From: Pseudomonas serboccidentalis | GTDB lineage: Bacteria; Pseudomonadota; Gammaproteobacteria; Pseudomonadales; Pseudomonadaceae | Direction of reading: 5' to 3' | Assembly (NCBI RefSeq): GCF_028830055.1 | Contig: NZ_CP101655.1 | Coordinates: 4,427,680 to 4,491,679, forward strand | Length of the DNA: 64,000 nt | In this document: one piece after another, positions 24,658 to 28,437 of the stretch | How positions within the stretch are numbered: the first letter of the stretch is position 1 | Layout: each line of letters begins with the position of its first letter | The notes under the pieces: generated by a model | Database searches by the model: none | Seen by the model: only the letters and a program-made list of their open reading frames with translations | Told to the model about the DNA's origin: nothing | Translations under genes and position numbers: made by a program

Positions 24658-26328
24658 TTACAACTGATAGCTGAAACTGATGCTGTAACGCGCCCGGCGA
24701 TTGAACGTATCCAGCGCTTCATCCGACATCGGCTTGGCGGCCTCCAACGCAATGTTGTAGTACTTGGCATCGCCAAAACGCAGCCCCACCGCCGCTGATG
24801 ACAGGTCGTTGCTCTGCACCTGCAGTTTGTTGAACCAGGTTTTGGAACGGTCCAGCACCACGTACGGCTGCAGAATGCGCACCCAGTTGCCGTCGCGATT
24901 GAAGCTGTAGTTGACCTCGTAAGCCGCCCCCCAGCCCTTGTCACCCGACGCTTGATCATCCGGGTAGCCACGGCCGAAGTTTTGCCCGCCAAACACCGCT
25001 CGCTCGCTGTCGGGCAAGGTGTCGTCGCTCCAGTACAGGGCGGCCGACAGCACCCCTTGCCAGTTGTCGAAGAACTTGTCGCTCTGCACCCCGGAGAGGC
25101 GCAGGCGCAGGAAGTTCAGGTCCAGCGCCGGGTTGTTGGAGTGCGCGCCCATGCTGTCGAGGCCTTGATACAGGCCGCCACTGAGAATCCGTAGCTGCCG
25201 GGTATCGGCCTTGCGCCAGTCGCCTTCGAACGCGAGGGCGCGCACGTTGGTGCGCTCCTCGATACTCACCGGGTAGCCGACCACGTCGTAACGGTTTTTG
25301 TCATCCACCGCGTACAGCCGCGCTCCACCATTGAGCAGCTCGTTGGATGCCGCAATGAACGGGTGGCTGACGCCGATGGAATAACGATCGTCCTCCTTGT
25401 GCGGCTTGAGTTCGAAGCCGTCGCTGGTGAGCACGTTGGTGCCCGGGTCGGCCCGGTAGCGAGAGGCGAACAGGCTCAGTTGCGTGCCTTCGCTGTTGAG
25501 GAACTGGTTGTAGTCCAGGCGGTAGTAGTGCTCGTGATCGTCCCCCGGCGGAAACAGACCGCTGAGGGTCAACTGCTCGCCCATGGCCGTCTGAGAATTG
25601 CTGCTGACGCCCAGCAGTGCCTGAGTACCGTTGCGATTGTCTTCGGTGGTGTTCAGGCTGCTGGTGAACGCTTTGCGGCTGGCCTGGGCCACCAGCGTGG
25701 TGGCGCCGTCGGTGGTGCCGGGCGGCGGTACTTGCGCCTGAAGGGTCACACCGGGGATGCGGGTCATCAGCGTGGTGTAGCGTTCGAACGTCTTGCGGGT
25801 CAGCGGTCGTTCGGCCTGGATTTTTGCTGCCAGTTCGTCGAGCAGACCTTTGACCCGACCGATATCGCCCTGCACCTGAACATCACGCACATAACCCTCC
25901 ACCAATACCACCCGGGCCACACCGCCATCGAAGCGCTGTTGCGGCAGGAAGGCATAGGACAGCAGGTAGCCGTCCTTCTGATAGCGACGGGTGATGTTGC
26001 GTGTGGCTTCGATCAGATCGGCCAGGCTGGTCTGGTGGCCGATCAGGGGTTTGTAGACTTCGGCCAGTTCGTTGAGCGGGTAGATCGTGCCGCCTTCGAT
26101 CTGCACGGTTTTCAGATTGATTTTTGTCTCCATCAGCAATGGTTGCGCTGCGGCCGCGCCAGGTTCTGGGACTTGCAGGGGCGTGGCGGCCGGACGATAG
26201 GCATCCGCCGGCAGGTTCGGCACGGGTAGATTGCGAGTGGTTTCGTTGCTGTTGAGAAAGCTGGGAAGGGTGTCGGCGAGGGCGGCGGAACTGATACTGA
26301 GGAACAGCAGGGATGCCATTACGCGCAT
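24658..26328 (-). CDS. ShlB/FhaC/HecB-family (TpsB) outer-membrane transporter
   Basis: A 556-residue Omp85-superfamily protein: signal peptide (MRVMASLLFLSISSAALA), a POTRA domain (LKTVQIEGGTIYPLNELAEVYKPL to FDGGVARVVLVEGYV), a second POTRA-like segment (about 140-205), then the 16-strand barrel with the lid-loop motif VFGGQNFGRGYPDD and terminal strand YSISFSYQL. TpsB proteins export large TpsA partners across the outer membrane. No gene with a haemagglutinin-type TPS secretion domain is nearby; the adjacent gene encodes a Gly/Thr-repeat lipoprotein. ATG 26328 has GGAG seven bases upstream. Confidence 0.9.
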   Translation of the reverse strand: MRVMASLLFLSISSAALADTLPSFLNSNETTRNLPVPNLPADAYRPAATPLQVPEPGAAAAQPLLMETKINLKTVQIEGGTIYPLNELAEVYKPLIGHQTSLADLIEATRNITRRYQKDGYLLSYAFLPQQRFDGGVARVVLVEGYVRDVQVQGDIGRVKGLLDELAAKIQAERPLTRKTFERYTTLMTRIPGVTLQAQVPPPGTTDGATTLVAQASRKAFTSSLNTTEDNRNGTQALLGVSSNSQTAMGEQLTLSGLFPPGDDHEHYYRLDYNQFLNSEGTQLSLFASRYRADPGTNVLTSDGFELKPHKEDDRYSIGVSHPFIAASNELLNGGARLYAVDDKNRYDVVGYPVSIEERTNVRALAFEGDWRKADTRQLRILSGGLYQGLDSMGAHSNNPALDLNFLRLRLSGVQSDKFFDNWQGVLSAALYWSDDTLPDSERAVFGGQNFGRGYPDDQASGDKGWGAAYEVNYSFNRDGNWVRILQPYVVLDRSKTWFNKLQVQSNDLSSAAVGLRFGDAKYYNIALEAAKPMSDEALDTFNRRARYSISFSYQL

Positions 26329-26375
26329 AGGACACTCCATGGTCAGATCACAGCGCTGGACTGAAGTTCTTCTAA

Positions 26376-26408
26376 GAAAAAAGCGGAAGACTCGTGGGAA
26401 TCTTCCGC
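26376..26408 (-). terminator. Intrinsic terminator after the Gly/Thr-rich lipoprotein gene
   Basis: On the minus strand GCGGAAGA and TCTTCCGC form an 8-bp stem followed by TTTTTTCTT. It stands between the lipoprotein gene and tpsB, so tpsB is either transcribed from its own promoter or by limited read-through. Confidence 0.85.
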
Positions 26409-26462
26409 CTTCAACCAAGCGTAGGCGCTGTAGGTGAGGCCGTCGAATCGGCCAGGTGCAAT

Positions 26463-28208
26463 TTAATGTGTGACGCCACCCAGAGTGCCGGTCAGGCCTC
26501 CGAGTACACCGCCCAGGCCGCCGGTGGTGCCGCCGGTGTTGGTTGTGCTGGTGGCGGTATTGAGCAGACCGCCGACCGTGCCGACGACCCCGCCGACCGC
26601 ACCGGCAGTCCCGCCAGTGGTTGTGCCGGTACCGCCGTTGAGCAGGCCGCCGACCGAGGCGACAGTGCTGCCGACATTGTTGACCACCCCACCGACTGCA
26701 GTCGTCACCGGGTTATTGGTGGACGCAATGGTGGTGCCGATGCTGCTCACCGCGCCGCCGACCTGACCGGTGAGACCGGCGACCGGTGCGCCCAGGCCCG
26801 TTGTGGCGCCGACTTGTTGGGTGACGCTGGTGACCGCGCTGGTCACCGGATTAAGCGCTGCGCCGACAGTGGCACCGACGGTGGCCAGCGGCGAAGTGGT
26901 CGCGGTGATCGGTGTGCCCGAGCCGCCGAGCACAGTGTTGACCGAGGCAATGGTGTTGCCCAGCGAGGCGGTGGTGACGCCAGCGGCGCTGACCGTGCCG
27001 TTGGTGTTACCGGCGTTCAGCCCGGAACCGACGTTGACCACTGCACCGCCGACGGTTTGCAACAAGCCCGTACCGCCCAGGCCACCGCTCAGTCCACCAC
27101 CGGAAGTGGTGCCGTTGTTTGCCAGCCCGCCCGCTGTGCTGACGGTGGTGCCGACGTTGCTCAGGGCACCGCCAACGGTGTTGGTCAGGGCATTGCCGCC
27201 GCCCGCGCCTGTGACCTGACCGCCGAGGCTTTTCACCGCGCCACCGACCTGGCCGATGACGCCATTAAGCGGAGCGCCGAGGCCGGTCGTGCTGCCCACT
27301 TTGTTAGTGGTGCTTTCAACCATCGCAATGACTGGTACCAGGCTGTTGCCGACATTCTTGGTCACCGAGCCGAGTGGGCCGGTGGTGGTGGCCAGGCTCA
27401 GGGTGTCGCCGAGCATGGTGACTTTCTCGCCGACGCCGTCAAGCACGGGTGCGACTTTGGTGACCACGCCGCCGACGACCGGAACACTGCCGGTGGCGGT
27501 CGCCAGTTTGCCGCTCAGGTCCGAAACACCAGTGCCGACATCCGCGACCACGCCGCCAACCGATGACGCGGTAACGCCCAGGCCATTGTCGACAGTGCCC
27601 AGTTTGCCGATGCCGTTGGTCACGCCATCACCCAGGGTGCTGACGACGTTGCCGGCGGTGTTGGCCGCGCTTTGCACGACGCCACCGACCACCGGAACGG
27701 TGCTCAACGAGTCGCCGACCTGGCCGACGCCATCGCCAACGCCGCTGACAGTTTTGCCGACATCCTGTACCAGAGTTGTCGTTACCAGTGGGGTAGTGGT
27801 CGGGGTGGTCGGCCCAGTCGGATCAGTTCCGCCTGTCCCCCCCGTGCCGCCTGTACCTCCGGTTCCTCCAGTGCCGGTGCCGCCTGTACCGCCTGTGCCA
27901 GCGGTACCACCTGTGCCTCCGGTTCCTCCTGTGCCACTCGTCCCACCGGTTCCTCCGGTACCACTGGTTCCGCCAGTTCCGCCTGTGCCTGCGGTTCCTC
28001 CGGTTCCGGAATCCGAGCCGCCAGTTCCGCCAGTTCCGCTGGTACCACCGCTGCCACTTGTTCCACCGCTGCCTGCTGCGGCGCTGTCCGGGGAAGAGCT
28101 GCCGGAACTGCTGTGATGGCCGCCACCGCCGCTGCTGCAGCCCGCGAGACCAAGGGAGAGGATCAAAGCCAGCGCTGTTGCCGATTTGCACCACACTTGA
28201 GTTTTCAT
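26463..28208 (-). CDS. Gly/Thr-repeat (collagen-like) surface lipoprotein
   Basis: A 581-residue protein. The signal peptide ends in LAGC (cysteine near residue 24, then SSGGGGHH), followed by roughly 80 residues of G-T-G/S/A triplets with glycine at every third place, as in collagen-like proteins but without proline. A TP-rich hinge follows, then about 440 residues of nearly uncharged Gly/Val/Leu/Thr repeats such as GGVVNNVGSTVASVGGLL. A longer unit TTGLGAPxxGxxGQVGGAV occurs twice. It is probably a surface fibre or matrix protein exported with the help of the adjacent TpsB; this is inference. AAGGA precedes the ATG. A lipobox in a TpsB partner would be atypical. Confidence 0.75.
   Translation of the reverse strand: MKTQVWCKSATALALILSLGLAGCSSGGGGHHSSSGSSSPDSAAAGSGGTSGSGGTSGTGGTGGSDSGTGGTAGTGGTGGTSGTGGTGGTSGTGGTGGTGGTAGTGGTGGTGTGGTGGTGGTGGTGGTDPTGPTTPTTTPLVTTTLVQDVGKTVSGVGDGVGQVGDSLSTVPVVGGVVQSAANTAGNVVSTLGDGVTNGIGKLGTVDNGLGVTASSVGGVVADVGTGVSDLSGKLATATGSVPVVGGVVTKVAPVLDGVGEKVTMLGDTLSLATTTGPLGSVTKNVGNSLVPVIAMVESTTNKVGSTTGLGAPLNGVIGQVGGAVKSLGGQVTGAGGGNALTNTVGGALSNVGTTVSTAGGLANNGTTSGGGLSGGLGGTGLLQTVGGAVVNVGSGLNAGNTNGTVSAAGVTTASLGNTIASVNTVLGGSGTPITATTSPLATVGATVGAALNPVTSAVTSVTQQVGATTGLGAPVAGLTGQVGGAVSSIGTTIASTNNPVTTAVGGVVNNVGSTVASVGGLLNGGTGTTTGGTAGAVGGVVGTVGGLLNTATSTTNTGGTTGGLGGVLGGLTGTLGGVTH
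27826..28070. repeat. GT-X triplet low-complexity tract inside the lipoprotein gene
   Basis: The DNA is a run of near-identical 9- to 18-base units (plus strand GTTCCTCCGGTACCACTG-like), coding on the minus strand for Gly-Thr-Gly/Ser/Ala triplets. Such tracts expand and contract in whole triplets, so length is likely to vary between strains. Confidence 0.8.
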
Positions 28209-28401: not shown

Positions 28402-28437
28402 CAAAAAAAAGCCTTGAAAATCAAGGCTGGATTTTTT
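28402..28437 (-). terminator. Intrinsic terminator of the maoC-fabG unit
   Basis: AGCCTTGA and TCAAGGCT pair around a 3-base loop; on the minus strand a run of eight T follows. It serves the minus-strand hydratase gene ending at 28536. On the plus strand TTTTTTT also follows, so it may act in both directions. Confidence 0.85.

What the first reader, a model, noticed from the sequence alone, without database searches (positions are those of the whole stretch)
24658..28208. TpsB transporter paired with a Gly/Thr-repeat lipoprotein instead of a TpsA exoprotein
Seen: a complete ShlB/FhaC-type transporter (POTRA, barrel, lid motif FGRGYPDD) follows a 581-residue protein with lipobox LAGC, about 80 residues of G-T-X triplets and about 440 residues of nearly uncharged Gly/Val repeats. 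No TPS haemagglutinin domain is present. Known: TpsB proteins usually secrete large beta-helical TpsA proteins. Inference: a non-canonical two-partner system for a fibrous, possibly lipid-anchored matrix protein, adjacent to and maybe co-regulated with the Tad pilus.
Basis: partly seen in the sequence, partly recalled or inferred. Interest (0 to 1): 0.7.

Follow-up and report, generated by a model that had tools for sequence, protein, structure and literature searches.

The report
Dedicated exporter for collagen-like surface lipoproteins
A soil Pseudomonas carries an outer-membrane export channel of a kind that normally ships giant adhesins, but here, and in many other bacteria, it is paired with a lipid-anchored, repeat-rich protein instead, which points to an unrecognised way of putting lipoproteins on the cell surface.

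Summary
A TpsB (ShlB/FhaC-type) transporter follows a 581-aa lipoprotein that Pfam assigns to Collagen_mid (PF15984); no TPS domain is detected. The pairing is conserved: of 96 sampled genomes with a Collagen_mid protein above Pfam's cut-off, 95 have tpsB directly downstream; in the other the contig ends. They include Pseudomonas and Burkholderia-, Cupriavidus- and Collimonas-like genomes. In a 47-protein tree, 27 such TpsBs and 7 from loci that lost the lipoprotein form one fully supported group, apart from exoprotein-linked TpsBs. Six such genomes have no TPS-domain match at all. Where pseudomonads lost the lipoprotein, TpsB evolves 1.6-2 times faster. The lipoprotein is predicted helical, neither collagen nor beta-helix. 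A terminator-like hairpin between the genes, in 64 of 74 loci, suggests more lipoprotein than transporter. Published Burkholderia work places BCAL1524, apparently a homologue, in outer-membrane vesicles and links it to autoaggregation, without noting the transporter. Best reading: a type Vb-derived system in which TpsB exports the lipoprotein as an adhesin, often co-deployed with the Tad pilus. Transport is untested; 16 genomes keep TpsB without the lipoprotein, and eight lipoprotein loci lack a nearby TpsB.

The parts
26463..28208 (-). Collagen_mid lipoprotein (CLP), 581 aa, proposed cargo
   Evidence: Translation; Pfam PF15984 E 9.5e-48
28137..28148 (-). Lipobox L-A-G-C24
   Evidence: by a permissive pattern a lipobox-like motif was found in 74 of 74 loci of the genus and 33 of 33 other CLPs examined
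27822..28067 (-). Gly-Thr-rich low-complexity linker (residues about 48-129)
   Evidence: Sequence; tandem repeats of period 9/18/27 within 27829-28007
27117..27686 (-). Collagen_mid domain, main stretch
   Evidence: Genome positions 4454796-4455365
26634..26906 (-). Second partial Collagen_mid stretch
   Evidence: Genome positions 4454313-4454585
26382..26409 (-). Terminator-like hairpin, followed by a T-run (26374-26381), between CLP and tpsB
   Evidence: RNA fold of 26355-26420 z -4.12; similar element in 64 of 74 loci against 0.6 expected in mononucleotide shuffles. The consensus scan did not list it
24658..26328 (-). TpsB transporter, 556 aa: one POTRA_2 by Pfam, a second POTRA-like unit and an Omp85-type barrel in the model
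   Evidence: Pfam; model pLDDT 78, pTM 0.75; best fold matches CdiB and FhaC
25894..26118 (-). POTRA_2 domain
   Evidence: residues 72-146 of the 557-residue query
24955..24978 (-). Lid-loop motif FGRGYPDD
   Evidence: aligned with the RG motif region of CdiB; Arg453 in 14 of 15 rows, His in L124
17028..24275 (+). Adjacent Tad genes: RcpC/CpaB, RcpA, TadZ, TadA, TadB, TadC, TadD (neighbourhood, not part of the pair)
   Evidence: ORFs; RcpC and T2SSF (TadB) by Pfam; the other names are recalled from gene order and sequence

Best explanation
The two genes are a two-partner export system of a non-canonical kind. The Collagen_mid lipoprotein is made with a lipoprotein signal, lipidated at Cys24 and sent to the outer membrane. 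The FhaC-like TpsB takes its nearly uncharged, repetitive chain from the periplasm through its POTRA domains and passes it through or along its barrel, so that the protein is shown on the surface, still lipid-anchored, where its heptad-repeat helical domain works as an adhesive or aggregation factor, often together with the Tad pilus. Because a terminator between the genes should give more lipoprotein than transporter, TpsB probably acts repeatedly and releases its cargo rather than staying plugged by it. Shown here: gene pairing, lipobox, TpsB family and predicted fold, separate TpsB group, absence of TPS-domain matches in some carriers, faster TpsB change after lipoprotein loss. Inferred: lipidation, recognition, transport, topology and function.
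For: Adjacent tpsB in 95 of 96 genomes with above-cut-off Collagen_mid, including genomes where Tad was not detected nearby and the neighbours differ (L223-L225, L227-L231, L271-L273). 47-protein tree: 27 CLP-linked and 7 CLP-less TpsBs form one group, 100/100, without any of the 9 exoprotein-linked TpsBs; TPS domain of those 9 neighbours supported by Pfam for L112, L238 and L282, by annotation for L279, L281 and L283, by a home-made profile for L280 and L285, unverified for L284. That profile finds no TPS-like ORF in 74 + 16 + 22 loci of the group; it found 3 of 5 held-out control loci. In 199 genomes of the genus all 76 with CLP have this TpsB. Six CLP+ genomes have no PF05860 match. TpsB/pbpC protein-distance ratio 1.62 in 104 CLP+ pairs and 3.29 in 87 CLP- pairs; TpsB/TadZ 1.53 (147 pairs) and 2.45 (27 pairs). 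Terminator-like hairpin in 64 of 74 loci. TpsB fold nearest CdiB and FhaC. Published (passages seen): BCAL1524 in outer-membrane vesicles, deletion lowers autoaggregation (PMC10303873); BCAL1520, 1523 and 1524 induced with Flp genes on membrane contact (PMC7970998).
Against: No experiment links this TpsB to surface display. Sixteen genomes of the genus keep an open tpsB without the lipoprotein, and a profile search finds no convincing CLP elsewhere in them (one match in 16, E 0.003; G096 also had a sub-cut-off Pfam match). Eight CLP loci in four Burkholderiales-like genomes have no TpsB within the stretch fetched, two of them near contig ends. The CLP has no TPS domain, the recognised TpsB-binding element. 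In 10 of 74 loci no terminator-like hairpin was found. In three carriers tpsB itself is interrupted (in-frame stop in G119; split frames in G619 and Cupriavidus campinensis), and in G076 the lipoprotein match is broken over short frames. BCAL1524's presence in vesicles does not by itself prove surface exposure.
Confidence: 0.65

Rival explanations
1. The lipoprotein is not cargo but a periplasm-facing accessory of TpsB, as outer-membrane lipoproteins are for BamA, and TpsB exports something else.
For: TpsB persists without it in 16 genomes; BamB is a lipoprotein partner of the Omp85 protein BamA (PMC4104836 passages).
Against: Extra CLP copies without a nearby TpsB (8 loci), variable repeat length, the terminator favouring CLP excess, and BCAL1524 in vesicles with an aggregation phenotype fit a surface product better.
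Confidence: 0.13
2. The two genes are only co-inherited and co-regulated parts of an adhesion island; the lipoprotein reaches the surface by another route or stays inside, and TpsB serves Tad or an unknown protein.
For: Tad core genes in 69 of 74 CLP loci of the genus and in all 9 Burkholderiales or Burkholderiales-like loci that hold the pair; 8 of 16 CLP-less tpsB loci still lie beside Tad core genes; an FhaC-named gene beside Tad falls with Tad in an rpoS mutant of P. fluorescens (PMC6372562 passages; orthology not tested).
Against: The pair persists where Tad is not detected in the stretch fetched (L223-L225, L227-L231, L271-L273) and in different gene orders; TpsB constraint relaxes when the lipoprotein is lost.
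Confidence: 0.17
3. The true partner is a TPS-domain exoprotein encoded elsewhere.
For: The genome has a TPS-domain protein of about 4,160 aa with no TpsB beside it (L113), found in 62 of 199 genomes and statistically associated with this TpsB (46 of 62 have it, Fisher p 1e-7). 85 of the 92 TpsB genomes have some TPS-domain match.
Against: 46 of 92 TpsB+ genomes lack that protein and 16 of its 62 carriers lack TpsB; 6 CLP+ genomes have no TPS-domain match at all; no TPS-like ORF in 112 loci of the TpsB group.
Confidence: 0.04

Closest known systems
Type Vb two-partner secretion (FhaB/FhaC, CdiA/CdiB)
   Same: TpsB with ShlB-type POTRA, Omp85-type barrel, lid-loop Arg and closest solved folds CdiB and FhaC; cargo gene beside transporter gene.
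   Different: Partner has a lipobox, no TPS domain and no predicted beta-helix; its gene lies 5' of tpsB, whereas in the 9 exoprotein-linked loci examined here tpsB is 5'; TpsB forms its own group.
Burkholderia cepacia complex Collagen_mid lipoproteins (Bcc-CLPs; BCAL1523, BCAL1524)
   Same: Same Pfam domain, lipoprotein signal, GT-rich repeats; same layout of two CLPs and an outer-membrane gene beside Flp/Tad (PMC10224339 sections 7 and 16; compare L266).
   Different: That paper lists BCAL1522 as a heme-utilisation-related outer-membrane protein; its main text has no occurrence of ShlB, TpsB or hemolysin.
Slam (DUF560) surface-lipoprotein export
   Same: Outer-membrane barrel often encoded beside its lipoprotein cargo; works like what is proposed (PMC7857515 passages).
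   Different: Slam has two TPRs and a predicted 14-stranded barrel; here it is an Omp85/TpsB with POTRAs.
Autotransporter lipoprotein NalP (type V)
   Same: A lipoprotein passenger exported by a type V route (PMC7857515 passages).
   Different: Single polypeptide with its own barrel; here two separate genes.

Membership tests
Two-partner secretion (type Vb) | Omp85-family transporter with ShlB-type POTRA | tested here: met
   POTRA_2 and ShlB above cut-off; fold nearest CdiB/FhaC
Two-partner secretion (type Vb) | Conserved lid-loop Arg | tested here: met
   R453 in FGRGY of the window protein, in 14 of 15 aligned rows
Two-partner secretion (type Vb) | Cargo with N-terminal TPS domain | tested here: not met
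   No PF05860 in the lipoprotein; the two TPS domains found in the genome lie elsewhere
Two-partner secretion (type Vb) | Beta-helical cargo | tested here: not met
   Heptad-like periodicity 3.55; all-helical model, moderate confidence, pLDDT 72, pTM 0.45
Two-partner secretion (type Vb) | Cargo export depends on TpsB | not testable with these tools
   Needs a deletion mutant
Collagen_mid lipoproteins (PF15984) | Domain above gathering score | tested here: met
   163.1 bits against 31.1
Collagen_mid lipoproteins (PF15984) | Lipoprotein signal | tested here: met
   L-A-G-C24; permissive pattern met in 74 of 74 and 33 of 33 relatives
True collagen | Proline-rich G-X-Y triple helix | tested here: inconclusive
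   G-T-rich triplets with little Pro; a triple helix cannot be tested here
Slam-type export | Slam/DUF560 barrel with TPRs | tested here: not met
   Pfam finds POTRA_2 and ShlB only

The most novel reading that the evidence does not exclude
A branch of the FhaC-like TpsB family has become a dedicated, reusable exporter of lipoproteins: it recognises nearly uncharged heptad-repeat chains without any TPS domain and delivers them, lipid included, to the outer leaflet. This would be a separate POTRA-based route for surface lipoproteins in beta- and gammaproteobacteria, beside Slam.
Probability: 0.4. Interest if true: 0.85.

Novelty: new variant of a known kind. Interest (0 to 1): 0.68.

Why it matters
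How lipoproteins cross the outer membrane is solved for few families. A second dedicated barrel, from a much-studied protein-export superfamily, would show that TpsB channels can work without a TPS domain or beta-helix folding and would make the substrate code of TpsB testable. It also gives Burkholderia collagen-like adhesins, one of which affects aggregation, a likely export partner, and links them to Tad pili across distant proteobacteria.

Tried and rejected
TPS exoprotein elsewhere as partner: rejected on distribution. Strict Tad dependence: rejected; the pair occurs where Tad was not detected within the stretch fetched. A diverged CLP hidden in the 16 CLP-less genomes: the profile search gave one match, E 0.003. 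A conserved basic C-terminus as a general export signal: holds in 72 of 74 loci of the genus but only 25 of 33 others, so not claimed. Solved homologues of the lipoprotein: none by sequence below E 0.1, none significant by fold. The named genome scan returned 80 loci, all Pseudomonas. Tblastn of the lipoprotein against plasmids found nothing, although its relatives lie beside the tpsB genes found there. Rows dropped before counting: seven genomes with sub-cut-off Collagen_mid matches (G028, G096, G240, G337, G728, G806, G939); the loci of two of them were read and hold no TpsB match (L232, L233). The tpsB of L106 (G119, in-frame stop) was left out of the tree and of the rate test. The tree used 47 TpsBs that I chose from those fetched; its exoprotein-linked rows are plasmid hits by similarity plus one own-genome protein, several on long branches. 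In the rate test pairs are not independent, CLP+ pairs were a random 150 per reference where more existed, and pairs with reference distance outside 0.03-0.5 were dropped. The TPS-like profile missed 2 of 5 held-out control loci, one of which has a Pfam TPS domain (L282). Literature: 10 searches of an open-access library only.
Full report
WHAT IS THERE. On the minus strand, a 581-residue lipoprotein (28208-26463) is followed after 134 bases by a 556-residue TpsB (26328-24658). The lipoprotein has a lipobox ending in Cys24, a Gly-Thr-rich stretch of about 80 residues, and about 440 residues without F, W, Y, R or C. Pfam assigns the latter to Collagen_mid, PF15984, in two stretches. The transporter matches POTRA_2 and ShlB; its closest solved relatives by sequence are CdiB and TpsB4 and by predicted fold CdiB and FhaC. 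The Tad locus lies on the plus strand beside it, with TadG-, TadE-, RcpC- and T2SSF-type proteins and a histidine kinase and LuxR-type regulator. The host is probably a Pseudomonas of the P. koreensis group: TpsB identity is 97% to Pseudomonas sp. H1h and 94% to P. koreensis DSM 16610. The other genomes of its genus are unnamed in these tools; I call them Pseudomonas on that basis.

HOW WIDESPREAD THE PAIR IS. In 199 genomes of the genus, 76 have Collagen_mid above the cut-off and 92 have an ortholog of this TpsB at 47% identity or more; the next TpsBs are at 30% or less. All 76 are among the 92. In the 74 loci fetched (L038-L111) the lipoprotein gene lies directly upstream, same strand, gap about 88-223 bases; the other two are the window and a short contig (G076), on which the lipoprotein match is broken over short frames. 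In G119 tpsB has an in-frame stop. Outside that draw I found 20 more genomes with above-cut-off matches: 8 in one small gammaproteobacterial family, G561, and 11 new ones from the phylum draw, one of which (G944) is of the same genus. In 19 of these 20 tpsB is directly downstream (split in two frames in G619); in G608 the contig ends 59 bases after the lipoprotein gene. Total 95 of 96. Three plasmid-collection records, from Cupriavidus metallidurans, C. campinensis (tpsB in two frames) and Caballeronia insecticola, show the same pair beside Tad genes. The genome G924, with three large contigs, has tpsB (561 aa), two Collagen_mid lipoproteins and Tad in the same order as published for B. cenocepacia BCAL1522-1524 and Flp (PMC10224339 table); BCAL1522, at 1,686 bp, has the same length. 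I take BCAL1522 to be this TpsB; its sequence was not fetched. G777 has the contig length of Collimonas fungivorans Ter331.

A SEPARATE TpsB GROUP. In a tree of 47 TpsBs, the 27 lipoprotein-linked proteins and 7 from CLP-less loci form one group (100/100, stem 0.87), apart from 9 with a large exoprotein downstream, two that follow a cyclase gene, and two ungrouped rows. Of the 9 exoprotein neighbours, a TPS domain is supported by Pfam for three (L112, L238, L282), by annotation for three (L279, L281, L283), by a home-made profile for two (L280, L285); L284 is unverified. Several outside rows sit on long branches, so their own order is unsure. The same profile finds no TPS-like ORF in 74 + 16 loci of the genus and 22 others of the group; it recovered 3 of 5 held-out controls. 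The CLP-less proteins nest among lipoprotein-linked ones. In L043, L055, L081, L091 and L095, among others, the order is pbpC - lipoprotein - tpsB; in 14 of the 16 CLP-less loci it is pbpC - tpsB. The lipoprotein was therefore most likely lost, not absent from the start. After loss TpsB changes faster relative to neighbours: TpsB/pbpC 3.29 against 1.62, TpsB/TadZ 2.45 against 1.53 (pairs are not independent, and the CLP+ pairs nearest the CLP-less group run from 1.6 to 2.4 against pbpC). This suggests that the lipoprotein constrains TpsB, though the reading frames stay open in the 16 CLP-less genomes.

THE TPS-EXOPROTEIN OBJECTION. The genome has two TPS-domain matches. One follows its own TpsB (L112); the other, beside secretion genes that look like a type II system, has no TpsB next to it (L113). 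A third TpsB-like gene has a different neighbourhood (L114). The unpaired exoprotein occurs in 62 of 199 genomes; 16 of these lack our TpsB, and 46 of 92 TpsB genomes lack it. The two are nevertheless associated (Fisher p 1e-7), as expected from shared ancestry or from a link that I cannot exclude. TPS domains are common in the genus (159 of 199 genomes), and 70 of 76 lipoprotein-bearing genomes have one. But six (G042, G100, G106, G116, G159, G167; estimated 99-100% complete, one of them a single contig) have no PF05860 match. One CLP-less TpsB genome, G103, has none either, so there TpsB has no visible partner of either kind.

THE CARGO CHAIN. Hydrophobic residues recur with period 3.55; the spectral peak, 1,673, exceeds the maximum of 200 shuffles, 1,008. 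An AlphaFold model of residues 140-581 from 35 sequences is essentially all-helical (mean pLDDT 72, pTM 0.45, five models from 72 down to 56) and matches no PDB fold significantly; the top-ranked are designed helical barrels and bundles. I conclude heptad-repeat helices with moderate confidence. Collagen and beta-helix are not supported. The lack of aromatics and of most charge would suit passage through a narrow pore; this is inference.

REGULATION AND STOICHIOMETRY. Between the two genes a strong hairpin (26409-26382) is followed by a T-run at 26381-26374 (fold z -4.12). A similar element is present in 64 of 74 loci against 0.6 expected in mononucleotide shuffles. The generic scan did not list it. 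It was not found in 10 loci: L061, L068 and eight that I label putida-like. If it terminates partly, the lipoprotein is made in excess over TpsB, which favours a transporter that releases its cargo. At least one Tad core gene is found in 69 of 74 lipoprotein loci; three of the five exceptions have short contigs or flanks. In B. cenocepacia, lipoprotein genes BCAL1520, 1523 and 1524 rise with the Flp genes on contact with host-derived membranes (PMC7970998, passages). In P. fluorescens an FhaC-named gene next to the Tad operon falls with it in an rpoS mutant (PMC6372562, passages); I could not test that it is the ortholog.

FUNCTION FROM THE LITERATURE. BCAL1524 was found in outer-membrane vesicles, and its deletion reduced autoaggregation and virulence in wax-moth larvae, but not biofilm formation in the conditions tested (PMC10303873, passages). 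The main text has no mention of BCAL1522. A review of two-partner secretion has one occurrence of 'lipoprotein' and none of 'collagen' (PMC5422565, find counts and passages). A survey of matrix components and Tad clusters of pseudomonads has no occurrence of hemolysin, FhaC, TpsB or collagen (PMC7716237, find counts and passages). I found no paper that joins the two proteins, in ten searches of an open-access library; of most papers I saw listings or passages only.

MECHANISM AND LIMITS. The most likely path is: lipidation, delivery to the outer membrane, capture by the TpsB POTRAs, export through the barrel, folding outside, and release to the outer leaflet. Only pairing and anatomy are shown. 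Against a strict pair stand 16 TpsB genes without the lipoprotein and 8 lipoprotein loci without a nearby TpsB in four Burkholderiales-like genomes (L258, L260, L262, L264, L265, L267, L268, L269; two of them, L258 and L262, near contig ends). The latter could share one transporter in trans, since each of those genomes also has a paired copy. The former suggest either decay or another job for TpsB.

VERDICT. Real, conserved, and not filed as ordinary two-partner secretion, because the defining cargo domain was tested and not met. It works like such a system, with a lipoprotein as cargo: a new variant of a known kind.

Noticed in passing
L113 (G000 1993000-2003000): A TPS-domain protein in an open frame of about 4,160 aa lies next to genes that look like a type II secretion system and has no TpsB beside it; relatives in 62 of 199 genomes of the genus.
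   Followed up: partly
L115-L130: In CLP-less pseudomonads tpsB sits directly behind pbpC in 14 of 16 loci; in the one locus scanned (L123) a bacterial alpha-2-macroglobulin precedes pbpC. Eight of the 16 loci show no Tad core gene nearby but keep a CpaA-like gene.
   Followed up: partly
L258, L260, L262, L264, L265, L267, L268, L269: Collagen_mid lipoproteins without a TpsB within the stretch fetched, in genomes that also have a paired copy.
   Followed up: no
L237, L276: Azospirillum TpsB relatives directly follow an adenylate/guanylate cyclase gene; in L276 a right-handed beta-helix protein is annotated two genes downstream.
   Followed up: no
window 28410-28428: Inverted repeat followed by a T-run on the minus strand, upstream of the lipoprotein gene.
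   Followed up: no
L106, L229 and L235: tpsB has an in-frame stop in G119 and is split into two frames in G619 and Cupriavidus campinensis; sequencing error or decay not resolved.
   Followed up: no
window 26140-26271: The N-terminal segment of TpsB (about residues 20-63) is conserved in the genus but predicted without confident structure, where FhaC is recalled to have a plug helix.
   Followed up: no
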